Source of the DNA: an uncultured marine group I thaumarchaeote
GTDB taxonomy: Archaea > Thermoproteota > Nitrososphaeria > Nitrososphaerales > Nitrosopumilaceae
Direction of reading: 5' to 3'
Assembly (NCBI GenBank): GCA_902552015.1
Contig: CACDFH010000007.1
Span: forward strand, 1 to 41,309
DNA: 41,309 bases
Below, piece by piece: positions 2 through 12,858 of the stretch; the first letter of the stretch is position 1; every line of letters begins with the position of its first letter. The position numbers and the translations under genes were made by a program. The notes under the pieces are model-generated. The model was not told the origin of the DNA. It saw nothing but the letters and a program-made list of their open reading frames with translations, and ran no database searches.

Positions 2-607
2 TTTTTGATAACAGCTGTAAGAAAACAACAAGGATTAGAAAATCACAGGGATTTAGCCAAATGGATAGTTAGACAAAGAATTGAGAGAGGATTAGTCACA
101 TCATTTGGAAAGACTTTGCAAAAAATAGCAAGAGAGTTTTCGGATGAAAAAACAACAAAAGGTTTTACTATGACTTTAAAAAAAAGAAACAAAAAATATA
201 ATTTGATAATCACATCAGGACCAAATCCATATGCTAAACGGCAAGCGAGTGATTTAAGAAGACAATTTATTATTTCAAAAAAAAATGATAAAAACTCTAT
301 ACCTATTTTAGGCATGTGCTATGGAGATGATGACGCTGTATCCTCAATTGTAAAAACAGAGTTAAAAGATTTCAAATATTATGTGGGCAGAGATTTTTGG
401 AGTTTTATTTCAGGTGAAAAAAATTGTAGAGATAAAATATTAAAAATTATGAATGATGTTAGTTATTCATTTAAAGAATTACATACAGAGAATATTCAAA
501 ATATTACCAATCAAAAAATTGATGAGATTGAGAAAATGTTAAAAACAAGATATGGAAAAGATTCAGTTAAATTTTGGAAGAAAATCATTGAAGATCTTTA
601 CATTTAA
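2..607 (+). CDS. Type II restriction endonuclease, PmeII-like, 5' partial
   Basis: The frame is open to the left edge of the window, so the true start probably lies outside; the first in-window start is TTG at 5. The visible 200 residues contain a segment around residues 66-82 (YNLIITSGPNPYAKRQ), then an LGMCYGDD stretch (about 103-110) and a GRDFWSFISG stretch (about 129-138). From memory, this order resembles the C-terminal half of PmeII-type endonucleases, where an I-K-S-G-P-N core carries the catalytic lysine; here that lysine position reads T. It lies 38 nt upstream of a DNA methyltransferase on the same strand, which supports a restriction-modification role. The protein would cleave DNA lacking the partner's methylation. 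The family call is tentative and activity is uncertain given the possible substitution. Confidence 0.6.
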   Translation, partial: FLITAVRKQQGLENHRDLAKWIVRQRIERGLVTSFGKTLQKIAREFSDEKTTKGFTMTLKKRNKKYNLIITSGPNPYAKRQASDLRRQFIISKKNDKNSIPILGMCYGDDDAVSSIVKTELKDFKYYVGRDFWSFISGEKNCRDKILKIMNDVSYSFKELHTENIQNITNQKIDEIEKMLKTRYGKDSVKFWKKIIEDLYI

Positions 608-616
608 GAAATGATG

Positions 617-628
617 TTTATATTTAAA
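617..628 (+). promoter_or_regulatory. TATA box for the methyltransferase gene
   Basis: The sequence TTTATATTTAAA is centred about 24 nt upstream of the methyltransferase ATG at 646. That spacing fits an archaeal TATA box giving a leaderless or nearly leaderless transcript. It suggests the methyltransferase can be transcribed separately from the upstream endonuclease. Confidence 0.45.
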
Positions 629-645
629 AAATTGAGTGTAGATTT

Positions 646-1593
646 ATGAAAGTAGATCAGATAATCAATGCAGATTGTTTAGATGAATTAAAAAAATTCA
701 AAGATAATACTGTAGATCTTATTGTGACATCACCACCATATGCAGGAAAGAGAAAAGATGATTATGGTTCTGTTTCAACTGGAAAGTATGTTGAATGGTT
801 TTCGCCAATCACTAAAGAACTATTACGTGTTTTAAAACCAACAGGCTCTTTTGTACTTAACATAAAGGAACCAGCTGAAAACGGTGAGCGCTCTACATAC
901 ATTATTGAATTGATTTTAGAAATGAAAAAACAAGGATGGAAGTGGACTGAAGAGTACATCTGGAGAAAGACTACATCTTTTCCAGGAAAATGGAATAATA
1001 GATTTAGAGATGGATGGGAAAGATGCTTACACTTTACCAAAGAAAACCCAAATCCAAGGATAGTTATTTCAGATTCAGGTAAAAAAACAAAAATAAATTT
1101 TACAATGAATCAAGATGCAGTTAAAATTCCAGTAGGTGATTGGGCAGATACTAGATTGAAAAAGCAAAAAAATGGCAAACTAGTTGACCGGGAAGAACAT
1201 GAGCTAGATATAGGAGATAAATTCAGAAGAACATCAAATTCTAAGAGTGGGCTTGGCAGACAGGTAGGAAATTGGCTAAAAAGACATAATGTAAATCCCG
1301 ATAATGTACTAGAGGAATATTCAAAGGCGAAAAATAAGGTCTTTTTGAACGCAGATAATGTACTTGAATTTGCACCAATTACAAAAGACAAAGGACACAG
1401 TGCTGCATTTCCAGATCAACTGCCAGAATTTTTCATAAAGTTATTCACAAATGAGGGAGAATTAGTACTAGACCCATTTGTTGGTTCTGGCACTACAGCA
1501 TATGTTGCAAAAAAATTAGGACGCAAATACATTGGAATTGAAAAAGAAGAAACGTACGCAGAAGAAGCTAAAGATTTGATTAAACAGGCCTGA
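646..1593 (+). CDS. DNA methyltransferase, beta class (N4-cytosine or N6-adenine)
   Basis: This 315-aa S-adenosylmethionine-dependent DNA methyltransferase carries catalytic motif IV as TSPPY at residues 28-32 and the SAM-binding motif I as DPFVGSG at residues 276-282. That order (catalytic motif first, SAM motif last) is the beta class. SPPY is commoner in N4-cytosine enzymes than DPPY, so N4-cytosine methylation is favoured but not certain. The central region (about 150-240) is Lys/Arg-rich and is probably target recognition. The ATG at 646 sits at leaderless distance from a TATA box. Together with the upstream endonuclease-like gene and the small downstream gene it forms a likely restriction-modification cassette beside tRNA-Arg. 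Confidence 0.9.
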   Translation: MKVDQIINADCLDELKKFKDNTVDLIVTSPPYAGKRKDDYGSVSTGKYVEWFSPITKELLRVLKPTGSFVLNIKEPAENGERSTYIIELILEMKKQGWKWTEEYIWRKTTSFPGKWNNRFRDGWERCLHFTKENPNPRIVISDSGKKTKINFTMNQDAVKIPVGDWADTRLKKQKNGKLVDREEHELDIGDKFRRTSNSKSGLGRQVGNWLKRHNVNPDNVLEEYSKAKNKVFLNADNVLEFAPITKDKGHSAAFPDQLPEFFIKLFTNEGELVLDPFVGSGTTAYVAKKLGRKYIGIEKEETYAEEAKDLIKQA

Positions 1594-1982: not shown

Positions 1983-3290
1983 ATGAATTTAGAGGAGTTA
2001 GAAAAACACGTAAGATATTGTATAGAAATTGAAGATTTAACATCTCTATACATTATTCAATATCTTCTATATCATGAAATTGAGACTAGACAAGGAATTT
2101 GGCAAGGATTAATCAAAATTTTACCTGGACAAGAAGAGATAACAGAAGATGAATGTCCCAAATGCGGTAGAAAAAAAGAAGATGAATATGGCTGGGAAAA
2201 ACAAGAGTTGTATTCACCAGATAAAGATGTAGAAGATATTCGACACAAATACATTACATACGTGTGTCAATATTGTGCATATTCAGTAGTTAAGAATCTA
2301 GATACAGGTCAGATTAACATTCCTATACAGAGACATGTAGAAACTAGTTTTGATGTAAGCTTTTCTCTATTACGAGAGAAAAATTTCATTAGAACGGATA
2401 GAAATAAGATGAATGCATTCATGCTTGCATTAGAAAAACCTCCAGAAAAATATCCACAGACAAAGATAACAGAGATTCAACAACTCTGTTTAAAAATAAT
2501 AGATGAACGGATCGGTGTCTTTGGATGGGATGAAATGGCCGATATAGACGCTCCAATCTTTATTGACGACACTGATGAAGCCATAAGGGCATATGAAGAA
2601 ATTGCAAGACAAACAAAGGAAGATTCTCAATCTAAAAATGATTTCAGAAAAATTCGTAAATACAGAGACATAGATTTCAGAGACTTCAAAGAATTAGATT
2701 TTATCAAAAAGGAGAGTACAGAAAAAGAACTTAGAGAAAAGATCAAAGAGACACTAGAGAAGATTACTGAGGATAATTCTGCATTATTTAACACAGGAGA
2801 TGATCTAGAATGGATAAAAAATAAGCCAAAAGAAGAACAAAACTGCATACATATCAAGTCCCTTCTTGATGCAACAGAAAAGCAACTACGAGAATTATTA
2901 ATATGGAAAGGGTTTGAAATATCAAAAAATTGGTTACCAAAGGGTCTAATAGACAAAAAAGAGTTTATCCGCAAAAAACAAGAAACTGCGTTAAAACAGT
3001 TTAGTGGAAATCCTAAAATTCTTACACCTGAAAGGCAGTTTTTGAATGCAATTACTTTAGGAGAATTAATAGAAATTATAATTTACACTCAACGTAATCA
3101 TAAAATTTTCTCTGATGTTTTTGAAGATTTTAAACAAATGGAGGTTTATTTCTTAAAGGAATTAAAAATATTACGAGATCAGATGGCGCATAATGACGAA
3201 CAAATTTCATGTACAGACGATTTAGTTGCAAAAACTAAAACTGTGACTAATGAAATTAATTCACAGATTCTAGCCTGGAGAGGAATATGA
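1983..3290 (+). CDS. Zinc-ribbon protein with C-terminal HEPN RNase-type domain
   Basis: This 435-aa protein starts 44 nt after tRNA-Arg. Residues 58-98 hold two CxxC knuckles (C58, C61, C95, C98), a zinc ribbon. The middle (about 130-330) is charged and helical. The last 100 residues contain helices around R-D-Q-M-A-H (R398 to H403), which matches the HEPN active-site pattern R-polar-x3-H, followed by a last helix. The helical context looks like the Swt1-type HEPN domains seen in bacterial and archaeal proteins. HEPN domains usually cleave RNA in toxin-antitoxin, abortive-infection and CRISPR systems. Being next to a restriction-modification cassette and a tRNA gene, it may be an RNA-cleaving defence protein. 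No antitoxin gene is obvious beside it. Confidence 0.6.
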   Translation: MNLEELEKHVRYCIEIEDLTSLYIIQYLLYHEIETRQGIWQGLIKILPGQEEITEDECPKCGRKKEDEYGWEKQELYSPDKDVEDIRHKYITYVCQYCAYSVVKNLDTGQINIPIQRHVETSFDVSFSLLREKNFIRTDRNKMNAFMLALEKPPEKYPQTKITEIQQLCLKIIDERIGVFGWDEMADIDAPIFIDDTDEAIRAYEEIARQTKEDSQSKNDFRKIRKYRDIDFRDFKELDFIKKESTEKELREKIKETLEKITEDNSALFNTGDDLEWIKNKPKEEQNCIHIKSLLDATEKQLRELLIWKGFEISKNWLPKGLIDKKEFIRKKQETALKQFSGNPKILTPERQFLNAITLGELIEIIIYTQRNHKIFSDVFEDFKQMEVYFLKELKILRDQMAHNDEQISCTDDLVAKTKTVTNEINSQILAWRGI

Positions 3291-3300
3291 GATTAAAAAA

Positions 3301-4077
3301 TCAGATTATTTCTGAAATGATTGATTCTAATTCCGTTCTTAGTTCACTACCCTTTGTATAATCAGGCTTTAGGGGATTCATCTTTCTACTTCTCAACTCA
3401 AACTCCCATTTTTTTGTCCAGACATCTTTAGAATTAATTGCAATACATGAACCACCATGCTTTTCAATCATTGAAAAACACGGAATATCGCTTGGACCAT
3501 CTCCCAGGTAAATCATATTCTCAAAGGGAACTCTTCGTTGCGACTCTTCTACAAAGTTGTTAACGTTGTATGGCTCTTCTCTAATGTTTGAGGTAATTCC
3601 TTTGTTTATGGCAAAGACAAATTTTGTTTTTTCTGTGAATGTTATGGATGATTTTATGCCTGCAATTACTCCATTTTTTTCATATAAACTTCCACCAAAA
3701 ATGTCGGTAAATGATTTTGAAAGTGATGTTCCTTTCATGAGAGATTCTATTCCTGATGATACAACATATCCTTCTACGTTTACATCAAATTCTGCATTAA
3801 TCTCATCAACGAAGGTATCTGCACCAGGAAAAACATCAAGTGATGCACCAAATGCTGCAAGTTTTGCGTTTGTGTTTTGTTTAATTTTTCCTTCTTGGAT
3901 TAGAGTTACCAAATTTGTCATCCATGCAATAGGTGGATCCCACTTTTGCTTTACCTGAATGTCAATTTCATCCCAAAAGTCTTGTGGCTCAAATCCGTTA
4001 TCTTTTAGCAGTAAGCTTGGTGCATCAGGCATTAGGGTATTGTCACAGTCTGAAATTATTGCGATAGTTCTAGTCAT
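3301..4077 (-). CDS. HAD-superfamily phosphatase
   Basis: This 258-aa protein carries all four HAD motifs: DCDNT at residues 10-14 (nucleophile D10, acid/base D12), a V-S-S-G motif II at about 106-109, a lysine motif III at K150/K152 and DGPSD at 193-197 for magnesium. The roughly 90-residue cap between motifs I and II is of the phosphoserine-phosphatase-like type. It should remove phosphate from a small metabolite; the substrate cannot be told. It is the last gene of the leftward operon, overlapping the cyclotransferase gene by 8 nt. It converges on the HEPN gene, leaving only 10 nt between stops. Confidence 0.85.
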   Translation of the reverse strand: MTRTIAIISDCDNTLMPDAPSLLLKDNGFEPQDFWDEIDIQVKQKWDPPIAWMTNLVTLIQEGKIKQNTNAKLAAFGASLDVFPGADTFVDEINAEFDVNVEGYVVSSGIESLMKGTSLSKSFTDIFGGSLYEKNGVIAGIKSSITFTEKTKFVFAINKGITSNIREEPYNVNNFVEESQRRVPFENMIYLGDGPSDIPCFSMIEKHGGSCIAINSKDVWTKKWEFELRSRKMNPLKPDYTKGSELRTELESIISEII

Positions 4078-4765
4078 ACATCGAATCCGAGACTTGTCCT
4101 GCTGAATACAATATGTTTTTGATTGCTACGTGGCCTAAATCATCAATTTTATCAAGATATTTTTTTGGTAACTTGTGCCATCGTCCTCCTTGAAGAATAA
4201 ATTCTAGATATTCGTCTGATGGTCCCAAATACGGCGGTTGTTTTGGGATCTTGTCTTCATATGCAACATATGTTGTTGCTTTGTAAGTTTTACCAGTTTG
4301 AACATCAACCACATTTACTGGAAATCTTTTGTAATCTCCACTTTGTGTACCTTCATAGCCATCAAGAATTTCAAATTCTTCTTCTGTACAAGAATAGATA
4401 ACTCCAAAAACAACACCATTTTTTCGTGGCATTATGTTGGAATAAGTAGTGGCTTGTTCTTTTCCGTCAACTTCACCTAAACCTGCATCTTTGTTAAATT
4501 TGAATTTGAATCCTTTTAATTTTACTAGCTTGACGTCGTAAATTTTTTTGAAAATTTCATAATTTTCTTTTGAAATAACGAAATCACGAACATGTTCTTG
4601 AAAATCACACTCGTCATTTTTACAAATTGGACAGGTATCAGGTTCTTCTCCGCCAAGTACTTCATCAGGATCATATCCATTTGCTGCTAGACGACCAATA
4701 CGTTCCTCGTAACGTTGTAGGTCCAGATTACTTCCATATGCAAAATACCATTGTTTTCTAGCCAT
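4070..4765 (-). CDS. Gamma-glutamylcyclotransferase-like protein with zinc-knuckle insert
   Basis: This 231-aa protein opens with the GGCT/AIG2 signature YFAYGSN (residues 7-13). It has the family's acidic catalytic residue in LDGYEGT (E138) and the later FPV...ATTYVA strands. Family members release cyclised glutamate (5-oxoproline) from gamma-glutamyl amines or peptides. Here about 50 residues (roughly 25-80) are inserted after YGSN and contain a C-x2-C-x4-C cluster (C45, C48, C53) with a nearby His58, likely a zinc site. A C-terminal extension of about 40 residues follows the last conserved strand. It overlaps both operon neighbours. Thaumarchaea are not known for glutathione, so another gamma-glutamyl substrate is likely. 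Confidence 0.8.
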   Translation of the reverse strand: MARKQWYFAYGSNLDLQRYEERIGRLAANGYDPDEVLGGEEPDTCPICKNDECDFQEHVRDFVISKENYEIFKKIYDVKLVKLKGFKFKFNKDAGLGEVDGKEQATTYSNIMPRKNGVVFGVIYSCTEEEFEILDGYEGTQSGDYKRFPVNVVDVQTGKTYKATTYVAYEDKIPKQPPYLGPSDEYLEFILQGGRWHKLPKKYLDKIDDLGHVAIKNILYSAGQVSDSMYD

Positions 4766-4946
4766 TTTTGAACCACTCCTTTGCGTCGTTCTTCACTATC
4801 TCATAATGACTTTGAAACATGTGTATTTGCACTTCCTTCCATGTATCGTAGCCATATCCGCATATCCCACAAAAAACCTCATCGTCTGGATCACCACCCC
4901 ATAATTCGTGCCAATTGGTTGGGTCAACATCTGTAATCATAGTCAA
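4758..4946 (-). CDS. Small C2H2 zinc-finger protein
   Basis: This 62-aa protein has one classical finger, C26-x2-C29-x12-H42-x4-H47, with the linker and helix spacing of C2H2 fingers. It overlaps the upstream 282-aa gene (ATGA-type) and the downstream cyclotransferase gene by 8 nt, so it is translated as part of the leftward operon. Single-finger archaeal proteins of this size are common in archaeal viruses and plasmids, where they act as DNA-binding or protein-binding adaptors. No target is identifiable. Confidence 0.7.
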   Translation of the reverse strand: MTMITDVDPTNWHELWGGDPDDEVFCGICGYGYDTWKEVQIHMFQSHYEIVKNDAKEWFKNG

Positions 4947-5791
4947 GTTCTCACCGTTTGCTTTACCTTTCGTTTTGATCTAGGTGGAGACGAAGGACCT
5001 CCAGAACTCTTGTTAGATTTGCTGCCAGGTTTTCCTTTACGATTTCCAGAACCTATAGATCGTTGGTACAACCAGGTAACAATTTCTTTTAGTGGAACAG
5101 GTTCAGGATTTTCAGACCAGATTTCTGCTTGTGTTGGAATGGATTTTTCATTCTGTTTCGAGTCATTATCGGATAATTTTACTGGTGCTGCTAACGAACC
5201 TGTTTCAGGCATAGAATCTAGTGTGAAAACCCCATATTGAAATCCGCCTAGTATTTGTGAAAAGGTCAAGTATGGATTTTTTACATTTTTTGCAACTTGT
5301 TCATTAACAAATATTGGGTATTCTACAAGCCAAACTTCTATTGCAAGACTAGGAATAATAAGACGATCAGGGTTTATGTCAAGTTTTAATTGTGTTATAG
5401 CCTCAGGTGGGAGATGTTTTTTCAGATGATCATGTAATGCGTATAATATTGATCTATTTGTGAGAACCAAAATTTTTTGTCTAGCATCAACAAATCTGTC
5501 TAATGTGTTAATTTTAGATTTTACAATTCTCAGTTGTCCTCTTTTCATTACCTTTCTATTTTCCATATTTACATTAGGTACAATGGATATTGCGATATCA
5601 ATGGAGTTTTGATTTAAAGCTACAAGATCTGTATCTGGATCAAGTTCTTTGCGTATTTTTTTTTGTGCTTGAACTCTCGATAGAATTTCAACATCGTTGT
5701 TAAAATGAAGTTCCAGAGTTTCCTTTACGAATCTACGTATAACACTTGGACTTAGCTCTTTAGGTCTTGATTGTTTTTTTGATTCGCTCAT
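4943..5791 (-). CDS. Unrecognised 282-aa operon protein with basic low-complexity tail
   Basis: I do not recognise this protein. Residues 1-60 are helical and charged, 85-175 look like an alpha/beta domain (strands around KILVLTNRS and RLIIPSLAIEVWLVEYP), and after about residue 245 there is a disordered tail rich in Gly, Ser, Lys and Arg, suggesting contact with nucleic acid or another protein. The stop overlaps the start of the C2H2 gene, and its own start overlaps the upstream gene's stop by ATGA. It is the largest unknown of the leftward operon. No transmembrane segment or signal peptide is visible. Confidence 0.65.
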   Translation of the reverse strand: MSESKKQSRPKELSPSVIRRFVKETLELHFNNDVEILSRVQAQKKIRKELDPDTDLVALNQNSIDIAISIVPNVNMENRKVMKRGQLRIVKSKINTLDRFVDARQKILVLTNRSILYALHDHLKKHLPPEAITQLKLDINPDRLIIPSLAIEVWLVEYPIFVNEQVAKNVKNPYLTFSQILGGFQYGVFTLDSMPETGSLAAPVKLSDNDSKQNEKSIPTQAEIWSENPEPVPLKEIVTWLYQRSIGSGNRKGKPGSKSNKSSGGPSSPPRSKRKVKQTVRT

Positions 5792-6351
5792 GTGAATTCA
5801 ATAACTCCCCCATCTTCAGGTACTTCTAAAATTACCTGTTGATGTTTTTCTAATCGATGATGTTTAGCTGTGTTTCGATCAATATTTACATAAAGAGCCC
5901 CAACATCAAGAATTGGCACACCTTGACCCTGAATGGCATGTTCATCAGTTATCCAAAGGCCGAAGAGTATGATTTTATTTTGTTGCTGTCTAATTTTTTC
6001 ATATTCTTTTTTCAATTCATCCAAATCATCAGACTCATTATCTGTATGACCCACAATATAGGCTACATCAGTTATGACTGAAAGATTGACTTGATGTAAA
6101 AGTTCATTGCATTTTTCAACAAAATCTTTTGCGGTATATCCTATACGTTGATCACTATGTGGTTTTGGAATATCAAAGAAATATCCATGACCTGAAAGTG
6201 GCTCTATAGGGATATGACTATGAGATAATTTTCTTGCCAAAGGATTGTCTCTGCGGAATTTATCATAGTGAGATGAAGCATTGTCAAATGGGATATTGAG
6301 CGGTCTAACCAATTGATCAGTGAGGTCATTAATGTTAAAATCTTTTACCAT
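5788..6351 (-). CDS. Unrecognised 187-aa operon protein
   Basis: No family is recognised. I chose the ATG at 6351, just after the preceding stop; a GTG at 6369 in the same frame would add six residues. The protein has a His-rich stretch near residues 28-60 (SHYDKF, SHSHIP, SGHGYFF) and a coiled-coil-like segment of Glu/Lys/Gln around residues 110-125. Two or three hydrophobic strands follow (KIILFGLWI, VPILDVGALYVNI). The C-terminal part resembles a small beta-barrel that ends in VILEVPEDGGVIEFT, similar in feel to Mov34/JAB or nuclease folds, but no diagnostic motif is present. It shares a 4-nt overlap with the 282-aa gene. Confidence 0.6.
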   Translation of the reverse strand: MVKDFNINDLTDQLVRPLNIPFDNASSHYDKFRRDNPLARKLSHSHIPIEPLSGHGYFFDIPKPHSDQRIGYTAKDFVEKCNELLHQVNLSVITDVAYIVGHTDNESDDLDELKKEYEKIRQQQNKIILFGLWITDEHAIQGQGVPILDVGALYVNIDRNTAKHHRLEKHQQVILEVPEDGGVIEFT

Positions 6352-6356
6352 TTTGA

Positions 6357-6884
6357 TTAAACACCCCACTGACTATCAGAGTCGTCAAGTCTGGTATGTC
6401 TGCCCTTGATTTGCTCAAATCTCGTATTAGGTCGTAAGGACTTCAAGAATCCGTCCGCGATGAAGAATTCATCTAGTAATTCCTCACCAATATCATTACA
6501 TTCTTTTGATGTAAGGCCGTGCGTTTCGGTGAATTTCTTAATTGTCTTTGCTACGCCCTCCTGAAATCTTGTATGAGGAATATTTTTGATTGTGCCTGTA
6601 GCATATACTGCTACAAACTCCACCACAAATTGCTCACGCTCAGTAAGTTGTTCAAGTTCTTCCCAGTATTGTGGAAGAGCTGTTTCAGGCTGAAATATCG
6701 TAGTCAGATGTTGGTCGGCAGAATTACTGAGTTTCCATGCCTCGTCATTGGTCACGTGACGTGCCCGTGCATCTTTTAGGATGCAGAGGGTTTTAGCTGC
6801 CCGCTCTGGTGGAACACGTGAGACATCTCTGACCAACTTGATGGACACGTAATGTGCGAGGAATTTCTCATTATCTGTTAACAT
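6357..6884 (-). CDS. Unrecognised 175-aa all-helical operon protein
   Basis: This appears to be a soluble, all-alpha protein without Cys motifs or membrane segments. Its start ATG (6884) lies inside the last codons of the small zinc-ribbon gene and overlaps its stop, so the two are translationally coupled. Residues 25-60 are basic (ERAAKTLCILKDARARH). Base composition here is noticeably richer in G and C than the core genes. I cannot assign a function; the position places it mid-operon, in the leftward set controlled from about 7.8 kb. Confidence 0.6.
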   Translation of the reverse strand: MLTDNEKFLAHYVSIKLVRDVSRVPPERAAKTLCILKDARARHVTNDEAWKLSNSADQHLTTIFQPETALPQYWEELEQLTEREQFVVEFVAVYATGTIKNIPHTRFQEGVAKTIKKFTETHGLTSKECNDIGEELLDEFFIADGFLKSLRPNTRFEQIKGRHTRLDDSDSQWGV

Positions 6885-7039
6885 ACAGACACCTCTTTTC
6901 TGTTACTCCACCAATTGCGGCAACGGCCACACTTTTGCAATAGCCTGGTTGCCTTGGACGGATGGGTGAAGATGGAATTGCAACTAACGCAGCGCAAGGT
7001 TTGCCTCCTTGTTCTTTGATCTTCTATTCTTACGGACAC
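6878..7039 (-). CDS. Small zinc-ribbon protein (paralogue of the 8991 gene)
   Basis: This 53-aa frame starts with GTG at 7039 and ends at TAA 6880-6878, overlapping the next gene's ATG by 7 nt. It has C17-x2-C20-x16-C37-x2-C40 in the context R-C-V-S-C ... Q-K-C-G-R-C-R. The same spacing and the Q-K-C-G-x-C-R wording recur in the protein at about 8991-9144 on the other strand. That recurrence is the main reason to believe both are genes. The start is uncertain because no ATG and no clear Shine-Dalgarno sequence is present. Likely zinc-stabilised nucleic-acid or protein binder. Confidence 0.5.
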   Translation of the reverse strand: MSVRIEDQRTRRQTLRCVSCNSIFTHPSKATRLLQKCGRCRNWWSNRKEVSVC

Positions 7040-7118
7040 CTCTATGGAAGTTTCTCACCCACAACTCCTGATTTGTAGTATCCAAGATACATCGCTTAAT
7101 GCATCTGCCCTTGAACAA

Positions 7119-7286
7119 TTAGATGTCCTCCTTGTCTAATCGTTTTGAGATCTTTTGCAGTATGTCCGAACCACTGTCTGTAATACTTATGCGAGTCTTT
7201 CGTCTAGCATTGCAGCTAGAATTAGTTACAATTTCAACTAAACCATGTTTTTCGAGGTCGGCAATAATTTCTCTAAGTGTGGCCAT
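7119..7286 (-). CDS. Short winged-helix DNA-binding protein
   Basis: This 55-aa protein starts at the ATG at 7286, chosen because GGAGAA lies about 7 nt upstream; the same frame is open for 29 more codons upstream. The sequence has a helix TLREIIADLEKHGLVE, a basic wing (NARRKTRISIT) and a last helix, typical of the recognition helix, wing and C-terminal helix of MarR/PadR-like winged-helix proteins. It lacks the usual first helices, so it is half the normal size. It may be an autoregulator of the leftward operon binding the palindrome at 7839-7855. The operator link is inferred. Confidence 0.55.
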   Translation of the reverse strand: MATLREIIADLEKHGLVEIVTNSSCNARRKTRISITDSGSDILQKISKRLDKEDI

Positions 7287-7461
7287 GCTGTATTCTCCTA
7301 TTGTTGTTTGAAAAAAAAGAAGGAGAGGATAGGTATTCTGCATATTCTGCTTGTACCTCATCCAATTCATCATTTGGAACTGTGTCGCTTGGTGCTAAGA
7401 TGACGTCGCCGCGTTGATCATCGGCAAAGTCATTTAGGCCAAACTCATCGTGAAGGTTCAT
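7273..7461 (-). CDS. Unrecognised 62-aa acidic protein
   Basis: The ATG at 7461 shares its first base with the previous stop (TAATG), a strong sign of coupled translation. The product is acidic in its first 40 residues (many Asp and Glu) and ends in a polar segment with a C-terminal Asn/Arg/His stretch. Its 3' end overlaps the winged-helix gene in another frame. There are no cysteines and no membrane segment. Function unknown; an acidic mini-protein next to a DNA-binding protein could be a partner or antagonist, but nothing in the sequence proves it. Confidence 0.45.
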   Translation of the reverse strand: MNLHDEFGLNDFADDQRGDVILAPSDTVPNDELDEVQAEYAEYLSSPSFFSNNNRRIQHGHT

Positions 7462-7775
7462 TAGTTGAGAAACCTCCCACCAAAGTCTGAATCCAATGCA
7501 GTAGTTGGTGGTTCAAATTCTTGGAACGATCTTGAGTTTTGGATCTCTCCGAAACGTCCTAAAATAAAAACAAGGCCATTGGAGGTCTGTACGTCCTTCA
7601 AGATTTGCCACTGGTTCTGCAATTGGTTGTTGAGATCAGTTTGTTGGGTCTGGATCGTTTTAGGATCAAAGTCGATTCCAACAAATTTGACTTCAGTCAG
7701 TCCAAATGAAATCTGTCTCGATGCCTCGCGGCAATCACGACAGTCACATTGTTTACTGTTTTCTAGTTTTGTCAT
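7461..7775 (-). CDS. Unrecognised 104-aa first protein of the leftward operon
   Basis: First gene of the leftward operon. Residues 9-15 hold C-x-C-x2-C (CDCRDC), which could bind zinc or iron. A strand-rich middle (VKFVGIDFD), a Gln-rich helix around residues 43-62 (NNQLQNQWQ) and a VFILGRFGEI strand follow. It is preceded by about 180 bp containing AT-rich promoter sequence and a perfect palindrome. Family not recognised. Confidence 0.55.
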   Translation of the reverse strand: MTKLENSKQCDCRDCREASRQISFGLTEVKFVGIDFDPKTIQTQQTDLNNQLQNQWQILKDVQTSNGLVFILGRFGEIQNSRSFQEFEPPTTALDSDFGGRFLN

Positions 7776-7838
7776 TGTAAAATTTAGAATTTCATCATAT
7801 TTATGTATTATACTAATACTTACATTATGTATCGTATT

Positions 7839-7855
7839 ATTAAGTATTACTTAAT
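7839..7855. promoter_or_regulatory. 17-bp palindromic operator candidate
   Basis: The sequence ATTAAGTA-T-TACTTAAT is a perfect inverted repeat with 8-bp arms. It sits 64-80 bp upstream of the first leftward gene (start 7775). The half-site core AAGTATTA occurs again, inverted, at about 7814-7822 and near 8805 in the promoter of the CARF gene. It is a good candidate binding site for an operon regulator such as the winged-helix protein. Confidence 0.5.
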
Positions 7856-7957
7856 TTCTAAGCACGAATGCTGAAACATATTTTATGACTAAAATATAGT
7901 GAGGACCCCTTCGACAGAGTCACAAAAAGTAGAAATTTTAATTTGTAAAACCAGAGA

Positions 7958-8773
7958 TTATGACGACATTTCATAGATAAATGCCATGCCTGCAGTGGTT
8001 AAACTAACATGATGGCTCTGACCAATTTTGGTTATGTCGATGTATTCCCAATCACTATCTAACTTTTGAATTATATTTTTGTCAAGTGCAGTCAATGTAT
8101 TTCCTGTAGATGGAATTAAATCCTGCTTAACACACTCGTTGGCAAGATCTTTTTTTCTCATTGATCCCCACATATGACCATCACCTTTACTTTCTTCTGC
8201 TTTTAATGGATGTTCTTCTTTACAAGGAAAAGTACAGGTGCCTTCCTGTTTAAGACTATTCTTATAGAGAATGAACAAGGCAGAACGTAGTTTGCCAGTA
8301 GGTAAGATCATTTGCCTTTTTGGAATTGTCTTTGTATCTTTTACGCCTGTTGATAATTGGTGTTTACCAGGTTTGAATCCCTCATATTTTTCAGATTCAG
8401 CATAAAACTCTACAATACCAGTTTGATCTTCTAACGTCATTATTGCCCTATCAAGTGCTATAGCATGATTTTTGGAACCACTAGCTACATTTACAAAAAT
8501 ATCATTTCCAAACTGTTCAAGAATTAGTCTTCTTGCAGCTCTTGTAATTGATTCTACATCTCGCCAGTTAACGGATATCTTTTCTGATTCAATTTTGTTT
8601 GACTTTAATTGTTTAATGATTTGTTCTGCATAGGAACTAGCCTTGTCTTCTTTTTTATTATTATGTACAAGTAAGAAAACTTTATCAGCTTTATTATCAA
8701 CTGCAGGTATGACTACCCTATCTATTTCAAAACCTACTGGTGCAATGTGTATACGTTTCTTACCTAATTTCAT
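7958..8773 (-). CDS. CARF-domain winged-helix transcription regulator (HFX_2341/Csa3-like)
   Basis: This is a 271-aa protein with two parts. Residues 5-150 form a Rossmann-like CARF domain: R-I-H-I-A-P-V-G-F-E-I-D-R at 7-19, the strand KVFLLVHN at 31-38 and the ligand-loop motif VNVASGSK at 94-101. Residues 160-271 look like a winged-helix region. The N-terminal wording closely matches HFX_2341-type (DUF6293) archaeal regulators as I remember them. CARF domains of this group bind cyclic oligoadenylate or related ligands in CRISPR systems; no CRISPR array or cas gene is visible here. It stands alone on the minus strand between two operons, and three AGTATCT repeats precede its ATG. It is probably the ligand-controlled switch of the region. 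Confidence 0.8.
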   Translation of the reverse strand: MKLGKKRIHIAPVGFEIDRVVIPAVDNKADKVFLLVHNNKKEDKASSYAEQIIKQLKSNKIESEKISVNWRDVESITRAARRLILEQFGNDIFVNVASGSKNHAIALDRAIMTLEDQTGIVEFYAESEKYEGFKPGKHQLSTGVKDTKTIPKRQMILPTGKLRSALFILYKNSLKQEGTCTFPCKEEHPLKAEESKGDGHMWGSMRKKDLANECVKQDLIPSTGNTLTALDKNIIQKLDSDWEYIDITKIGQSHHVSLTTAGMAFIYEMSS

Positions 8774-8775
8774 AT

Positions 8776-8819
8776 AGTATCTGTATTATCAATAGTATCT
8801 CAGAAGTATTAAAGTATCT
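8776..8819. repeat. Three AGTATCT repeats at the CARF gene promoter
   Basis: AGTATCT occurs at 8776-8782, 8794-8800 and 8813-8819, spaced 18 and 19 bp start to start. The first copy begins just 3 bp upstream of the CARF regulator's ATG. A further AAGTATTA lies between the second and third. The regular spacing points to an operator array, with autoregulation of the CARF gene the simplest reading; an iteron-type origin is the alternative. Confidence 0.6.
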
Positions 8820-8914
8820 AAATAACGAAATACTTGCACCGTGTTTTTGGGGAAAATACATGAAAATGATGACTGGATTGGGTTCATGGATGGTAATGTC
8901 CATACCCTACATAT

Positions 8915-8937
8915 ATACTATAGTATGCATAGTATGC
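8915..8937. promoter_or_regulatory. Palindrome and direct repeat in the rightward operon control region
   Basis: ATACTATAGTAT (8915-8926) is a perfect 12-bp palindrome. It runs into two direct copies of TAGTATGC at 8921-8928 and 8930-8937, separated by one base, and GATACTA follows at about 8947. The core AGTAT is shared with the CARF promoter repeats. The position, 54 bp before the first gene at 8991, fits an operator or a core promoter of the rightward operon. Confidence 0.5.
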
Positions 8938-8990
8938 TGAGTAGGGATACTAATATATTATACAACCTCCTAAAAATGTAGGGGATGTTT

Positions 8991-9144
8991 ATGGAGGAGA
9001 TAAAAAATTCGTTGTTTAGTGTGTAAGGTCGTGGTTCGTTATGCGTCAACCGCATCAAAGAAGGTGCAAAAGTGTGGATCATGTCGTGCTAGTGAACAAG
9101 AGGAAAATGCAGCAATTAGATCAAGAGGTGGTAGTGATGACTGA
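8991..9144 (+). CDS. Small zinc-ribbon protein, frame broken in an A6 run or started at ATT
   Basis: The frame ending at TGA 9142-9144 encodes R-C-L-V-C ... Q-K-C-G-S-C-R with C-x2-C-x16-C-x2-C, the same spacing and wording as the protein at 6878-7039. It has no ATG, GTG or TTG after the in-frame stop TAA at 9001. Two explanations exist. ATG 8991 (preceded by AGGGGAT) enters this frame if one A is missing from the run 9002-9007, so either a sequence error, a decayed gene or slippage. Or translation starts at ATT 9007, which has GGAGGAG 7 nt upstream. The next gene's ATG overlaps this stop. Product about 45-50 aa, probably zinc-binding. Confidence 0.45.
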
Positions 9145-9433
9145 GAAAAAGAAAACCAAAAAGAAAGAGAAAGTAAGCAAGGATGAATCTCAAAAATGTT
9201 CATGTGGTTGTGGTCAAGATCTAACACCTAGAGAAACACCATACTGGGATATTGAAGGGGATATTGAAGAAAAGAAAGAGGTATTTGGTGAAGGTTGTCG
9301 TGAAGATGAACATCGTATAGCAAATGCGCAAAGGGAATTGCATGCAAGGATGACTGAAGGTGATCGAGATCAAGCATTAAAGTGGGTTGCTTACTATCGG
9401 GCACTTTTGCAGGAGGATTATGATAGGACATGA
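9137..9433 (+). CDS. Unrecognised 98-aa protein with lysine-rich start and CSCGCG cluster
   Basis: I chose ATG 9137 because GAGGTG lies 6-7 nt upstream and it overlaps the previous stop; the frame is open 32 codons further. The first 20 residues are almost all Lys, Glu and Thr, so probably disordered. C-S-C-G-C-G at residues 21-26 is a compact cysteine cluster with a fourth Cys at about 54, plausible zinc ligands. The rest is helical and ends in W-x-A-Y-Y-R-A-L-L-Q-E-D-Y. ATGA overlap with the next gene. Function unknown. Confidence 0.6.
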   Translation: MTEKKKTKKKEKVSKDESQKCSCGCGQDLTPRETPYWDIEGDIEEKKEVFGEGCREDEHRIANAQRELHARMTEGDRDQALKWVAYYRALLQEDYDRT

Positions 9434-9693
9434 TGAGTAGGTGGTGGTTGTTCTGGGGAACAGCATTTTGTTGTAGTGGATTTCTATTACCATTAGGAGT
9501 AATAATACTTGTTTGGTATTTCATAGACTACATCTTCAAAAGCGGTGGAATTAACACGGGTAAGCAGTACATTGACAATACCTACAACATTGCTAACGTG
9601 AACATTCGTCCAGGGCCAGATGTTTCAGACAAAGATGACTTTGATACGCCAATGGATCATATGTCAAAAGAATCCAGAGAGGAGATGAGGTAG
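9430..9693 (+). CDS. Small membrane protein
   Basis: This 87-aa protein begins with an aromatic, hydrophobic region at residues 4-35 (WWLFWGTAFCC ... IILVWYFIDYIF) that makes one long or two short membrane segments, followed by a polar acidic tail of about 50 residues. It overlaps the previous gene by ATGA and abuts the next. Probably membrane-anchored with the tail in the cytoplasm or outside; orientation cannot be told. No family recognised. Confidence 0.6.
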   Translation: MMSRWWLFWGTAFCCSGFLLPLGVIILVWYFIDYIFKSGGINTGKQYIDNTYNIANVNIRPGPDVSDKDDFDTPMDHMSKESREEMR

Positions 9694-10539
9694 ATGATTA
9701 GAAAGATTCCTGATGATTCAGATAGAAATTATGACATTGTTCACATGCTAAAAAAAATTGCAATCGGATTAGAATCAAAGAATGTGGATGATTTACGAGC
9801 AATTGCCCATGAACTTGAGGCGTGGGTGCCACATGGAGATTGGAGCAAATTAGATGTCAAAACCAAGGTGTTTGTAGAACACATTTTGATGGCACTAGGT
9901 AGACTCCAGTTAGGATTCGAGATACTAGACAAAGGAGCAGACGAGTTAACTGACATACGACAAAAAGTGGAAAATGACGAGATCCATGAATTGATAGATG
10001 AAGCCGATCACGAGGATGATTTCGAAAGAAAGATGAGTGGATTGGCAAGTGAATATGATGAAATAGTTGATGGGGCTCAGGAAATAACTACAGAAGACAT
10101 CGATAAATTCACCCGAAGAAATCTAGACAGAGTTGATAGGAGAGAAAAGTTCACTTGTGAAAAATGTGGAATTGAAAAGAGAAGTAGTGCACCAGGTGTC
10201 AATAATTGCAAAGAAGTGGATGGTCATGTAATATGTGGAAGATGCTATAGAGCATTCAAAAATTGGTTTGAAAAGACGAACAGAAAATTAGATGAGTTTT
10301 GGGATGAAAAGTATGTAAGAAAAGGAACTTGGGATGGAGGTCCAATTGATAAAGCAAAGACTAATGCTTTCGTAAGAAAACTAATGCGAGATTACAGTTT
10401 GCCGGATGGTCAAATTGATTGGAAGAAATTTCACAGAGCTAGAAGAGAAATAGAAAAAAGACTTCGGAAAGAAAGACACAACAAAGAACGCTATAGAAAA
10501 GACGAGCTATCTGACGAAGAAAAGGAGGATCTAAAATGA
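9694..10539 (+). CDS. Unrecognised 281-aa protein with five-cysteine zinc finger
   Basis: The N-terminal 140 residues are helical and acidic. Residues 155-184 contain C155-x2-C158 ... C172 ... C181-x2-C184 in a treble-clef-like context (CEKCGIEKR ... VICGRCYRAFKNWF). The last 60 residues are strongly basic and helical (many Arg and Lys, e.g. RREIEKRLRKERHNKERYRK). That layout of zinc finger plus basic helix suggests nucleic-acid binding. A GAGG sequence precedes the ATG. The gene follows the membrane protein without a gap and overlaps the next gene by ATGA. It is the largest gene of the rightward operon and a candidate central protein, but no family match comes to mind. Confidence 0.65.
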   Translation: MIRKIPDDSDRNYDIVHMLKKIAIGLESKNVDDLRAIAHELEAWVPHGDWSKLDVKTKVFVEHILMALGRLQLGFEILDKGADELTDIRQKVENDEIHELIDEADHEDDFERKMSGLASEYDEIVDGAQEITTEDIDKFTRRNLDRVDRREKFTCEKCGIEKRSSAPGVNNCKEVDGHVICGRCYRAFKNWFEKTNRKLDEFWDEKYVRKGTWDGGPIDKAKTNAFVRKLMRDYSLPDGQIDWKKFHRARREIEKRLRKERHNKERYRKDELSDEEKEDLK

Positions 10540-10730
10540 TTCATGGGATGGTTAATTTGACCACAAAGGATTTGCAAACCATACTTCTTTGGTACGAACT
10601 TTACTTCAAAAAGAAAAACAAACCAACACGAGCAGACACCAATGTGTACACCAAGATAAAGGCAATGGCAATTGCTGAAAAAGAAGACGATGAAAAATAC
10701 GACAGAATTAGAATTGGAAGAAATGATTGA
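10536..10730 (+). CDS. Unrecognised 64-aa charged helical protein
   Basis: ATG at 10536 overlaps the previous TGA. The product is helical and mixed-charge, with an aromatic segment (ILLWYELYFKKKNK) early and an acidic/lysine-rich end. There are no cysteines. It is followed by 53 nt before the next start. Function unknown. Confidence 0.5.
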   Translation: MIHGMVNLTTKDLQTILLWYELYFKKKNKPTRADTNVYTKIKAMAIAEKEDDEKYDRIRIGRND

Positions 10731-10783
10731 ATTATGGTAATCAACTATTACAAAAACTCAACAAACACAAAGGAGGTGGTATA

Positions 10784-11203
10784 ATGAGTATGTGCAAAGT
10801 CTGTCATAGAGACAGCGCAAAACATAGTGAAAAGACATGGTTGTTGCATCAACAGAAACAGAGATGCAATTTCTGTGGAGACTATAGGGGAAAACACAGT
10901 GAAAAGCTGTGGAACATACACCAAGAAGCAGTGCCAAATAATACAAAATTGGCTACAATACTTTTAGGTCAAGGACCAAAAGTATTAGCAAAAATTGTAA
11001 AGTGGAATACTGTCAAGGTGAATGGAAGAGATTCATCACATCACATAGAATATGTTCCAATCTATATGAAGTGTAGTGAGTGTGGTGCAACATTGGGCAA
11101 TGCAGAAGAGAAACTAGCAGATGTTTTTGATAAAACATGTCTAGAGTGCTTTTGCAACATGACAGAACAGGAGGTCAAGTGGTATGAACGCCCTAGAGTA
11201 TAA
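10784..11203 (+). CDS. Tandem-finger zinc protein (two C-x2-C-x6-H-x7-H repeats)
   Basis: The ATG at 10784 has an excellent Shine-Dalgarno sequence, AGGAGGTG, 6 nt upstream, so this start is preferred over upstream TTG. The 139-aa product begins with two near-identical units, C-x2-C-x6-H-x7-H, both containing K-H-S-E-K-x-W-x2-H-Q, at residues 4-24 and 29-49. A third zinc site near residues 97-125 is made of two CxxC pairs (CSEC and CLEC). The middle third is basic. Repeat duplication and three zinc sites suggest a DNA- or RNA-binding protein. The family is not recognised. Its 3' end overlaps the next gene by 20 nt. Confidence 0.7.
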   Translation: MSMCKVCHRDSAKHSEKTWLLHQQKQRCNFCGDYRGKHSEKLWNIHQEAVPNNTKLATILLGQGPKVLAKIVKWNTVKVNGRDSSHHIEYVPIYMKCSECGATLGNAEEKLADVFDKTCLECFCNMTEQEVKWYERPRV

Positions 11204-11534
11204 CCTTACAGGAAATGAAAAATTTTCTGTATGGTTTACAACCATGCTGATGATGAGTAATGAGCAACTAGACTATGATTCTAAGGTGAGAATTGTGAAA
11301 ATGGCAAAAGAGGTGTGTGCAGGAGAGGACATAGATATCAAGAAAATAGAAAATGAGGATTCTAAAGAGCTGGCAAAGTATCAAAAAAAAGTCAAAGAGT
11401 TTGAAGCGATGAAGGAGGCCATTAGAAAAGAGATGGATCTGATAAAACAAGTTCTGGATGCATGTTATGGGGAAGTCAAGGTCAAGGAAGACTGTGACCA
11501 TCAAAACAAGAAAAAATATGGGTGGAAGAACTGA
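11184..11534 (+). CDS. Unrecognised 116-aa coiled-coil protein
   Basis: The ATG at 11184 lies inside the previous gene and is preceded by GGAGGTC at the right distance. Residues 1-35 are mixed. Residues 45-95 are a heptad-like run of Lys, Glu and hydrophobics (DIKKIENEDSKELAKYQKK and following), so a coiled coil is likely. The end carries Cys and His (YGEVKVKEDCDHQ). It probably oligomerises or bridges partners; function unknown. Confidence 0.6.
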   Translation: MNALEYNLTGNEKFSVWFTTMLMMSNEQLDYDSKVRIVKMAKEVCAGEDIDIKKIENEDSKELAKYQKKVKEFEAMKEAIRKEMDLIKQVLDACYGEVKVKEDCDHQNKKKYGWKN

Positions 11535-11824
11535 TGGGTCGCTGGGATGAAGACAAGCGTCCAGGTATTGAAATCTTGGGAGACTTTCGCAACTTGCAGC
11601 TACGTCTGCTTCACTGCAGAGACAAAAGAAAAAGGACTAAGGGATTTGATAAAGTGATAATGGCAGATTTGGCAATGAAAGAACTGTACCAAGATATGAG
11701 AGAACTCTATGAAAGAAATCGTAACAGGTTTTACGATATTCTAACTAAGAATGAGGCTACCGGCTTTGAGTGTTTTGCGTGGTACTTGATGCTATCAGAA
11801 GAGACACAAAAGAGGTTAAGATGA
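11534..11824 (+). CDS. Unrecognised 96-aa helical protein
   Basis: I chose ATG 11534, which overlaps the previous stop as TGATG; a GTG at 11522 in frame would add four residues. The product is basic and helical (LRLLHCRDKRKRTKG, MRELYERNRNRFYDIL). It ends close to the next ATG with an ATGA overlap. No motif or family recognised. Confidence 0.55.
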   Translation: MGRWDEDKRPGIEILGDFRNLQLRLLHCRDKRKRTKGFDKVIMADLAMKELYQDMRELYERNRNRFYDILTKNEATGFECFAWYLMLSEETQKRLR

Positions 11825-12021
11825 TTTTCACATACACAGATTTTCCGTTTGGTTTAGTGAATGAAAAGGAAAGAGCAATCAAGCTATATCCATACAGCAT
11901 CCCAAAGACTGTAAGAGACTATCATGAGGATTTTTTGACGTTCTGTCTTGGCAATCATGATGACAAATGCCACTGCAGAGGATGTAAAGAGTTGGAGGAT
12001 AATGATGGAACATTGGGATAG
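11821..12021 (+). CDS. Unrecognised 66-aa protein with CHCRGC motif
   Basis: ATG 11821 overlaps the preceding TGA (ATGA). The product has an aromatic N-terminus (MIFTYTDFPFGL) and C-x-C-x2-C near residues 50-55 after a histidine (N-H-D-D-K-C-H-C-R-G-C), a compact metal-binding cluster like the one in the first leftward gene (CDCRDC). Its end overlaps the next gene's start. Function unknown. Confidence 0.5.
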   Translation: MIFTYTDFPFGLVNEKERAIKLYPYSIPKTVRDYHEDFLTFCLGNHDDKCHCRGCKELEDNDGTLG

Positions 12022-12301
12022 GCGCGAAAAGTCAATTGATGGAGAGACTACAGAAGAAATTATGGAAGATTTTGAGGTAGCTAAAATTTGGGTAAAGTGT
12101 TATCAATACAAAAAAGAGCACTTTCTGATTGGTTTGGATCTAATCTCTGAAGGCAAAAGGATTGACGAACAACTTGATTTTTGGGAGTTAAGACTTGAAA
12201 AGATATGCAGGGAGAATTACAAGTTGTTAAAATCAAAAGGAAAAGAGACCGATGAAGTAATGAATTTTTTTTCAGAGAAAACAAAAGAGAAGCTCAAATG
12301 A
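12005..12301 (+). CDS. Unrecognised 98-aa helical protein
   Basis: Of two adjacent ATG codons (12002, 12005), the second is better spaced from GGAGG at 11994-11998. The frame is open upstream but without a comparable ribosome site. The product is helical with mixed charge, a central K-C-Y-Q-Y-K-K-E-H-F segment and a basic/acidic C-terminal half. It overlaps the membrane-protein gene by ATGA. Family unknown. Confidence 0.5.
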   Translation: MEHWDRREKSIDGETTEEIMEDFEVAKIWVKCYQYKKEHFLIGLDLISEGKRIDEQLDFWELRLEKICRENYKLLKSKGKETDEVMNFFSEKTKEKLK

Positions 12302-12858
12302 TATTCATCAGAAAAAGAATACAGGCGATACTAGATCTCAAAAAAGAACGACATTTCGTTCCTGGATTTATCCTAGGTTCGTACGGAATAGTCATGCTTG
12401 CAACACTGATGGCTTATGGAACCTTTTTGTTCTTTGGAAAGATCGAGAACCCATTCTTTGACAGTTTGATGCCTATTGGTTGGTTGTTTATGCCAATGTA
12501 TGTAACACTAATTACAATAATTGTTGGAAGAGAGATAATTTGGTGTCACATGATGATCTTCAGACAGCTAGATCATCTTACAAAGTGGATTATTGACAAG
12601 TATTCAATTAGATACTTCAAAAAACACAAAAAAGATCCGCCAGTCATTGACTTTCTTGCAAAGGTGCAATACAAGCTATTTGCAAAGTTTACCAAAATGA
12701 CACCACGTGGGAGGAAAAGAATGATGATTTCTGCAATTTCTGTATGGATTGCATGGGTAGTATTAGGAAGGACCGATACTGTCGATGTGATTTTAGGTGA
12801 GGTGGAAAGGCAGTTTACAGATGTTCAGCAATGGTTCATTCTAATAATTTCTTTTTAG
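12298..12858 (+). CDS. Membrane protein, last gene of the rightward operon
   Basis: This 186-aa protein has two clear membrane segments at about 22-46 and 58-80 with a short loop containing a Pro-Ile-Gly turn, and a third hydrophobic stretch at about 143-155 (AISVWIAWVVLG) with a hydrophobic C-terminus. The region between is basic (KKHKKDPP, TPRGRKRMM), likely cytoplasmic. It ends 10 nt before a convergent gene. It resembles small holin-like or transport-accessory membrane proteins only in layout; no family recognised. Confidence 0.65.
   Translation: MIFIRKRIQAILDLKKERHFVPGFILGSYGIVMLATLMAYGTFLFFGKIENPFFDSLMPIGWLFMPMYVTLITIIVGREIIWCHMMIFRQLDHLTKWIIDKYSIRYFKKHKKDPPVIDFLAKVQYKLFAKFTKMTPRGRKRMMISAISVWIAWVVLGRTDTVDVILGEVERQFTDVQQWFILIISF

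What the first reader, a model, noticed from the sequence alone, without database searches (positions are those of the whole stretch)
8991..12858. Rightward operon of about eleven overlapping unrecognised genes, rich in metal clusters and membrane segments
Ten junctions overlap or abut and most starts have clear ribosome sites (GAGGTG, GGAGGTC, AGGAGGTG, GGAGG). Predicted products: several zinc proteins (residue clusters CSCGCG, CHCRGC, tandem C-x2-C-x6-H-x7-H, five-cysteine finger), a coiled coil, two membrane proteins. I recognise none. The combination with a CARF regulator and a paralogous zinc ribbon in each operon looks like an undescribed coordinated system or a mobile element's cargo.
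Basis: partly seen in the sequence, partly recalled or inferred. Interest (0 to 1): 0.8.

Follow-up and report, generated by a model that had tools for sequence, protein, structure and literature searches.

The report
CARF-controlled small-protein operon in defence island
An ocean ammonia-oxidising archaeon carries, in a chromosomal hotspot full of virus-defence genes, a tightly packed set of eleven unknown small genes next to a nucleotide-sensing-type regulator, and both promoters carry the same DNA switch that recurs across the family, which suggests an undescribed inducible defence module.

Summary
Eleven short rightward genes (about 9007-12858) form one unit: 9 of 10 junctions overlap or abut (one 53-nt gap), and none has a credible Pfam, PHROG or PADLOC match. 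The window is a contig of a Ca. Nitrosopelagicus-genus genome. The operon ends where host chromosome begins, at a hotspot that holds different gene sets in related genomes, usually with restriction-modification, McrBC, Dnd or DISARM-like genes.

Two new findings. (1) The CARF gene 7958-8773 (HFX_2341 family) and the operon share a candidate operator: ATAGTAT/ATACTAT half-sites every 9 bp, between TATA box and start. The same array lies 18-22 bp from this CARF family in 24 genomes of several genera, and recurs at other promoters in related islands. In the genus, 11/11 CARF-positive genomes have it against 1/20 CARF-negative. (2) Four products end in one shared peptide, h-S-[DEK]-[DEK]-x-x-[EK]-x-h-[KR]-stop; it recurs in relatives.

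Best reading: a CARF-repressed, inducible module, probably anti-virus, with tail-bearing proteins assembling at the membrane. Regulation is well supported; ligand, assembly and defence are inferred. No virus or plasmid replication match for the window's genes, but mobile origin is not excluded.

The parts
9007..9144 (+). gene 1: small zinc ribbon (CxxC...CxxC), paralogue of 6878-7039; start codon uncertain (ATT 9007 after GGAGGAG, or GTG 9019)
   Evidence: BLASTP 41% over 27 aa with 6881-7039
9137..9433 (+). gene 2: CSCGCG motif plus C-terminal DxRIxxAxRxLHxRM...W module (family F5)
   Evidence: alignment A5 of 8 relatives; homologue in G067 68%
9430..9693 (+). gene 3: small membrane protein with C-terminal tail HMSKESREEMR (family F2)
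   Evidence: alignment A4, 98/57/68/38% identity in four genomes
9694..10539 (+). gene 4: 281-aa mostly helical protein with a five-cysteine finger; tail ELSDEEKEDLK
   Evidence: 85% identical in G067 only, 2 of 250 family genomes; low-confidence model
10536..10730 (+). gene 5: 64-aa unknown
   Evidence: no family match
10784..11203 (+). gene 6: tandem zinc-finger protein (C-x2-C-x6-H-x7-H twice, then CxxC...CxxCF) (family F3)
   Evidence: A1, zinc ligands invariant; found in 17 of 250 family genomes
11184..11534 (+). gene 7: 116-aa coiled-coil-like protein
   Evidence: homologue in G067, L005 560-895
11534..11824 (+). gene 8: 96 aa, begins MGRWD, tail MLSEETQKRLR
   Evidence: homologue in G067 L005 1103-1393
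11821..12021 (+). gene 9: 66 aa with CHCRGC
12005..12301 (+). gene 10: 98 aa, begins MEHWD, tail FFSEKTKEKLK
   Evidence: homologue in G067 L005 1348-1689
12298..12858 (+). gene 11: 186-aa multi-pass membrane protein (family F4)
   Evidence: A3; 6 of 400 genomes of the order, three genera
8920..8953 (+). candidate operator at the operon promoter: ATAGTAT GC ATAGTAT GC TGAGTAG GG ATACTAA, four half-sites at 9-bp spacing
   Evidence: best 4-unit array in the 41-kb window, score 24 against a maximum of 22 in 60 random windows; conserved in G067
8908..8917 (+). TATA-box-like element of the rightward operon
   Evidence: sequence, (inference)
8774..8798 (-). candidate operator at the CARF promoter, three half-sites
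   Evidence: best 3-unit array in the window, score 19 against a maximum of 18 in 60 random windows; conserved in ten aligned CARF promoters
8807..8815 (-). TATA-box-like element of the CARF gene (CTTTAATAC)
   Evidence: sequence, (inference)
7958..8773 (-). CARF plus winged-helix regulator, HFX_2341/DUF6293 family
   Evidence: PF19810 1.8e-29 and PF22665 7.9e-9; PADLOC CARF3 1.1e-42
7461..7775 (-). leftward gene after CARF: family F6 'KFVGVxFDP...GxVxALG', recurs near CARF in five related loci
   Evidence: sequence comparison by eye
6878..7039 (-). paralogous zinc ribbon in the leftward set
3301..4077 (-). HAD-like phosphatase; relatives lie next to the CARF islands of G067 and G072
   Evidence: (weak Pfam match)

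Best explanation
The eleven genes are the output operon of an inducible island module controlled by the divergent CARF regulator. Shown from sequence: one polycistronic unit; a CARF/winged-helix protein of the HFX_2341 family beside it; an array of ATAGTAT/ATACTAT half-sites at 9-bp steps between the TATA box and the start of both divergent genes; the same array at the start of this CARF family across the family of archaea; hypervariable placement among known defence genes. Inferred: the CARF protein binds the array as a repressor and shuts off itself and the operon; a ligand, possibly a cyclic oligonucleotide or another infection-derived nucleotide, releases it; the operon then makes two membrane proteins and several zinc proteins that assemble at the membrane, held together by a common C-terminal helix-like tail found on four otherwise unlike products; the assembly acts against viruses or other invading DNA. 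I rate the regulatory part at about 0.8, an anti-invader role at about 0.5, and tail-driven assembly at about 0.35.
For: Operator: A7 shows the motif in all ten CARF promoters, from three genera. It recurs at further promoters inside islands: L025 12 matches against 1.8 expected, L026 12 against 1.5, L074 9 against 1.6, L078 11 against 1.1. It is absent, at chance level, from islands without this CARF subfamily (L030, L079). In 24 genomes it lies 18-22 bp from the CARF domain match. Genome-level association within the genus is 11/11 against 1/20, p = 1.4e-7, and over 250 genomes the odds ratio is 19. In the window the two best arrays are exactly the two divergent promoters. Repressor: HFX_2341 of Haloferax mediterranei represses many genes, including cas genes when over-expressed (PMC11434293). 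Defence setting: restriction-modification, McrB-like, Dnd-like and DISARM-like helicase/PLD/methylase genes beside homologous modules. Tail: 4 of 11 operon products against 0 of 46 other window proteins, per-protein chance about 9e-6; repeated in relatives.
Against: No expression, binding or phage-challenge data exist. No Cmr2-type Cas10 was found in 31 genus genomes, so the source of a cyclic oligoadenylate is unknown and the ligand may be something else; Csm-type Cas10 and CD-NTases were not searched. None of the operon proteins matches a PADLOC model. The G052 island keeps zinc and tail relatives without the CARF or the operator, so this control is not universal. The last residues of the tail are partly dictated by the ribosome site of the overlapping next gene. 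The tail motif was defined after looking at the data. The defence labels in relatives are mostly my reading of sequences, not HMM-tested one by one.
Confidence: 0.5

Rival explanations
1. The operon is the remnant or satellite of an integrated virus or plasmid: early-type small genes (zinc proteins, membrane proteins) kept in a hotspot, with the CARF protein as the element's own repressor.
For: Short overlapping genes, no cellular homologues and a divergent repressor look like an element's control region. Relatives carry a DUF7220 membrane protein, a phage family (PF23858 2.9e-16, phrog_4276 3.6e-16). G067 ends its longer operon with an AAA+ ATPase weakly like a phage primase (phrog_864 4e-5). 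The module lies at different chromosomal sites in G067 and the window. A tRNA-Arg lies at 1863-1939.
Against: No match in 50,697 phage records for gene 4, nor in viral contigs for genes 4 and 6. No repeat of the tRNA 3' end. No integrase or capsid gene was recognised in the loci read. The CARF gene with its operator occurs in many genomes of the family without these genes.
Confidence: 0.25
2. The module is a stress or envelope-remodelling regulon that merely shares a recombination hotspot with defence genes.
For: HFX_2341 is described as a global regulator acting mostly on transport and envelope genes, and is found in archaea lacking CRISPR (PMC11434293). The operon has membrane proteins and surface-protein neighbours in relatives.
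Against: Patchy presence: gene 6 in 17 of 250 family genomes, gene 4 in 2 of 250. Gene content is shuffled, and neighbours are repeatedly defence-like.
Confidence: 0.15
3. The shared C-terminal tail is only a by-product of translational coupling: the ribosome site of the overlapping next gene is read as E-[DE]-h-[KR].
For: Every tail inspected is followed closely by the next start, and GAGG-type sequence encodes its last residues.
Against: The hydrophobic-serine pair and acidic residues lie 21-30 nt upstream, outside the ribosome site, and serine is encoded by both TCN and AGT. A DNA pattern for the whole tail, run over 31 genus genomes, gave nine hits without an in-frame stop in the recognised islands; the few others were in-frame-stop hits, one intergenic copy in G070 and one unverified. 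Genes 1, 2, 5, 6, 7 and 9 of the same operon lack the tail though most also overlap the next start.
Confidence: 0.25

Closest known systems
HFX_2341 (DUF6293) regulator of Haloferax mediterranei (PMC11434293)
   Same: Same protein family (PF19810 and PF22665); CARF-like domain plus winged helix; repressor activity is reported there.
   Different: Here it sits in a variable defence island with a divergent operon. The cited paper does not mention operators, binding sites or autoregulation.
Csa3 CARF transcription factors of Sulfolobales (PMC8844856, PMC8699464)
   Same: CARF plus winged-helix architecture; ligand-controlled regulation is the likely logic.
   Different: Csa3 is CRISPR-associated. 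No CRISPR genes were recognised beside this locus and no Cmr2-type Cas10 was found in the genus. The Csa3 N-terminal Pfam model gives only 0.0052.
BrxR/CapW-type WYL repressors of bacterial defence islands (PMC9122601)
   Same: A repressor with a ligand-type sensor domain, encoded in a defence island, binding inverted repeats at more than one promoter.
   Different: A WYL sensor instead of CARF, bacteria instead of archaea, and known effectors (BREX, restriction) instead of an unknown small-protein operon.
Thaumarchaeal integrated mobile elements (PMC6563490)
   Same: Variable regions with unknown genes in thaumarchaeal chromosomes.
   Different: That survey reports no identifiable element in Ca. 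N. brevis CN25. The present islands show no integrase or tRNA 3' repeat in what I read.

Membership tests
HFX_2341/DUF6293 regulator family (gene 7958-8773) | N-terminal CARF-like domain PF19810 | tested here: met
   1.8e-29, 103 bits against cut-off 30
HFX_2341/DUF6293 regulator family (gene 7958-8773) | C-terminal winged-helix domain PF22665 | tested here: met
   7.9e-9, 36.3 bits against cut-off 27
HFX_2341/DUF6293 regulator family (gene 7958-8773) | represses transcription | not testable with these tools
   only the placement of the candidate operator over the inferred start region supports it
Csa3 (CRISPR-linked CARF regulator) | Csa3 N-terminal domain PF22662 above cut-off | tested here: not met
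   E 0.0052, 17.2 bits against cut-off 27
Csa3 (CRISPR-linked CARF regulator) | type III CRISPR Cas10 in the genome as ligand source | tested here: inconclusive
   TIGR02577 absent in 31 genus genomes; Csm1-type model not searched; window genome 59% complete
Known anti-phage defence systems (PADLOC) for the operon proteins | match to any PADLOC model | tested here: not met
   six operon proteins scanned, best E 0.013-0.034, not credible
Virus or plasmid replication module | replication, integrase or virion gene in the window's operon | tested here: not met
   PHROGs best 0.0024, unknown function; no phage or viral-contig match for the genes searched
tRNA-integrated mobile element | direct repeat of the tRNA 3' end at the other boundary | tested here: not met
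   no repeat of tRNA-Arg in the window; contig starts at window position 1, so the left side is not fully visible
Defence-island resident (hypervariable hotspot with defence genes) | same flank, different content in related genomes | tested here: met
   host genes right of 12869 are shared by G052, G065, G068, G066 and G072 with different islands; G073 has the 73-aa flank gene
Defence-island resident (hypervariable hotspot with defence genes) | known defence genes adjacent | tested here: met
   EcoO109I-like enzyme PF14511 2.3e-12 and DNA methylase 5.2e-48 at 5-1593, though they lie beyond the tRNA; others read by eye in relatives

The most novel reading that the evidence does not exclude
A previously undescribed archaeal antiviral system: a CARF sensor-repressor with a 9-bp-periodic operator controls, in defence islands of Nitrosopumilaceae, a set of membrane and zinc proteins that carry a common C-terminal docking peptide and assemble into a membrane-bound effector, without CRISPR.
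Probability: 0.3. Interest if true: 0.85.

Novelty: new variant of a known kind. Interest (0 to 1): 0.62.

Why it matters
CARF regulators without CRISPR are common in archaea, yet what they control and what they sense is mostly unknown. The 9-bp-periodic array gives a directly testable DNA target for a whole CARF subfamily across an ecologically major group, the marine ammonia-oxidising archaea, and a way to list its regulon by sequence alone. If the operon is a defence effector it would be a new kind; if the shared tail is a docking signal, it gives a handle for finding further members in islands of otherwise unreadable small genes.

Tried and rejected
Family searches of all operon genes in Pfam and PHROGs, and of six in PADLOC: only chance-level hits. 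tblastn of gene 4 in phage records and pattern scans of viral contigs with genes 4 and 6: nothing. PDB sequence search with the zinc and CARF profiles: nothing. Structure prediction of genes 6 and 4 gave low confidence (pLDDT 56 and 48), so I ran no fold search on them. A tRNA-mediated integration was tested by repeats and not supported. My first tail pattern was written in the wrong frame and found nothing; the corrected one is. I first thought the gene-3 relative of G072 was the last gene of its operon, which would have ruled out the ribosome-site rival; reading the DNA showed another overlapping start, so that argument was dropped. Genes 8 and 10 looked like paralogues by eye, but BLASTP does not support it (E 0.91). 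Whether the operator also controls the leftward genes separately: no array lies between 7776 and 7957, so they probably read through from the CARF promoter, if they are regulated at all.
Full report
WHAT IS THERE. Gaps between neighbours are -8, -4, 0, -4, +53, -20, -1, -4, -17 and -4, so nine of ten junctions overlap or abut. Ribosome sites are visible before most starts. Gene 1 has no ordinary start that includes its first CxxC; ATT 9007 after GGAGGAG, or GTG 9019, are the candidates (inference). Composition also marks the block: GC skew is about +0.3 in the windows from 9001 to 12000, among the highest in the window, consistent with one long same-strand unit.

WHERE IT IS. The window is contig C7 of a 0.84-Mb, 59% complete genome. 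Contigs of the same genus are titled Candidatus Nitrosopelagicus. To the right of 12869 lies ordinary chromosome: an SPFH-type protein, a sugar dehydrogenase, STT3 and others (my reading). That flank is found in 18 of 31 genus genomes, and next to it other genomes hold different sets: G065, G052, G068, G066 and G072; G073 has the flank's 73-aa gene too. This is a hypervariable hotspot. G067 has the closest operon (gene 4 85% identical; gene 11 79%) in a different chromosomal setting, with a longer tail of genes ending in an AAA+ ATPase.

RECURRING PARTS. The 281-aa gene 4 is rare (2 of 250 family genomes). The tandem zinc protein (gene 6) is in 17 of 250, the gene-11 membrane protein in 6 of 400 genomes of the order. 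The small membrane protein of gene 3 has relatives in at least four islands and in genus g16. So the set is modular: a smaller core is reused with different additions, among them DnaJ-domain membrane proteins, DUF7220, Cas4-like nucleases and Zn ribbons (others by eye). Neighbouring genes in relatives include type II restriction, McrB-like, Dnd-like and DISARM-like sets (labels mostly by eye).

THE CONTROL ELEMENT. Aligning the start regions of ten CARF genes from these loci showed one conserved block, ATAGTATnnATACTATnnATACTAT, between a TATA-like box and the start codon. In several relatives the start codon lies inside the block, so the proteins begin MHTVHTM or MDTMNTI. In the window the best three-unit array is 8774-8798, at the CARF promoter, and the best four-unit array is 8920-8953, at the operon promoter; both exceed the maxima of 60 random windows, the first only narrowly (19 against 18; 24 against 22). 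The simple consensus search of the window alone is not significant (6 matches, 9 of 100 shuffles reach it); the strength comes from conservation. In related islands the array is enriched well above shuffles and lies before other genes too. Islands without this CARF subfamily show none above chance.

Family-wide, the 25-bp pattern with up to three mismatches occurs in 123 of 250 genomes and the CARF family in 114. They go together: 95 genomes have both, 19 CARF only, 28 pattern only, 108 neither (p = 2e-24; genomes are related, so this overstates independence). In Nitrosopelagicus it is 11, 0, 1 and 19. In 24 of the roughly 32 genomes of the first half of the list with a strong CARF match, the pattern lies 18-22 bp from the domain match. 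Seven sampled loci, six of them in other genera, were read and in each the pattern sits at a CARF start. Placement over the expected transcription start suggests repression. That fits the reported repressor activity of HFX_2341 (PMC11434293), a paper that does not describe an operator.

THE SHARED TAIL. Genes 3, 4, 8 and 10 end HMSKESREEMR, ELSDEEKEDLK, MLSEETQKRLR and FFSEKTKEKLK. Four of 11 operon proteins fit the motif and none of 46 other window proteins; composition gives about 9e-6 per protein. The motif was defined after seeing it, so the probability is only a guide. Independent support: a DNA pattern for it, run over 31 genomes, hit chiefly these islands, and new instances turned up afterwards in other genera: YDDNTKEKFK in L078 and FSKDVLEEFR in L117. 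Its end overlaps the ribosome site of the next gene, which explains the last four residues but not the hydrophobic-serine pair. As a working idea it is a capped helix that docks to a common partner. This is inference.

MECHANISM. I commit to a CARF-repressed, ligand-released operon whose products assemble at the membrane and act against invading elements. The regulatory half rests on conserved DNA; the rest rests on company kept, metal and membrane motifs and the shared tail. No Cmr2-type Cas10 was found in the genus, so if the ligand is a cyclic oligonucleotide it comes from elsewhere.

COMPARISON. The regulator is a member of the HFX_2341/DUF6293 family. It is not a Csa3 by the tested domain. 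The arrangement works like the BrxR repressors of bacterial defence islands (PMC9122601) but is not a member of that family. The operon itself belongs to no family I could find. Filed as a new variant of a known kind, regulated defence islands, with an effector set that may prove categorically new.

Noticed in passing
window 5-1593: EcoO109I-like type II restriction enzyme (PF14511 2.3e-12) and DNA methylase (5.2e-48), just left of tRNA-Arg(TCG) 1863-1939; a methylase and the 67-aa gene 1630-1833 recur beside the same tRNA in G065.
   Followed up: partly
window 4070-4765: AIG2/gamma-glutamylcyclotransferase-like protein (PF13772 8.8e-17; phage auxiliary family phrog_2520) in the leftward set.
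   Followed up: no
L025, L026, L027, L031, L074, L079, L110: A metallo-beta-lactamase-fold, RNase-J-like protein of about 460-520 aa recurs in these islands and near the CARF gene.
   Followed up: no
L028 (G229) 2140-8400: HFX_2341-type CARF and the small membrane protein precede genes that read as DndB, DndC and DndD.
   Followed up: no
L077 1983-6583; L081 2014-2886; L079 1003-1980: A second, divergent CARF protein lies in the islands, in L077 beside a Cas4-like nuclease (phrog_1706 1.6e-20), a MoxR-like ATPase and a vWA-type protein.
   Followed up: partly
L082 10080-10125 (G070:C3): An intergenic stretch between housekeeping genes encodes LMLSDETQKRFR-stop, nearly the end of gene 8, with no intact gene; possibly the scar of a lost copy.
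   Followed up: partly
L030 (G052, complete genome): The island of the Nitrosopelagicus complete genome keeps relatives of genes 2, 4 and 6, with a tail, but has neither the CARF family nor the operator.
   Followed up: yes
L074 13627-15142: Two adjacent genes read like a DarT-type enzyme and a macro-domain partner, beside a DISARM-like set.
   Followed up: no
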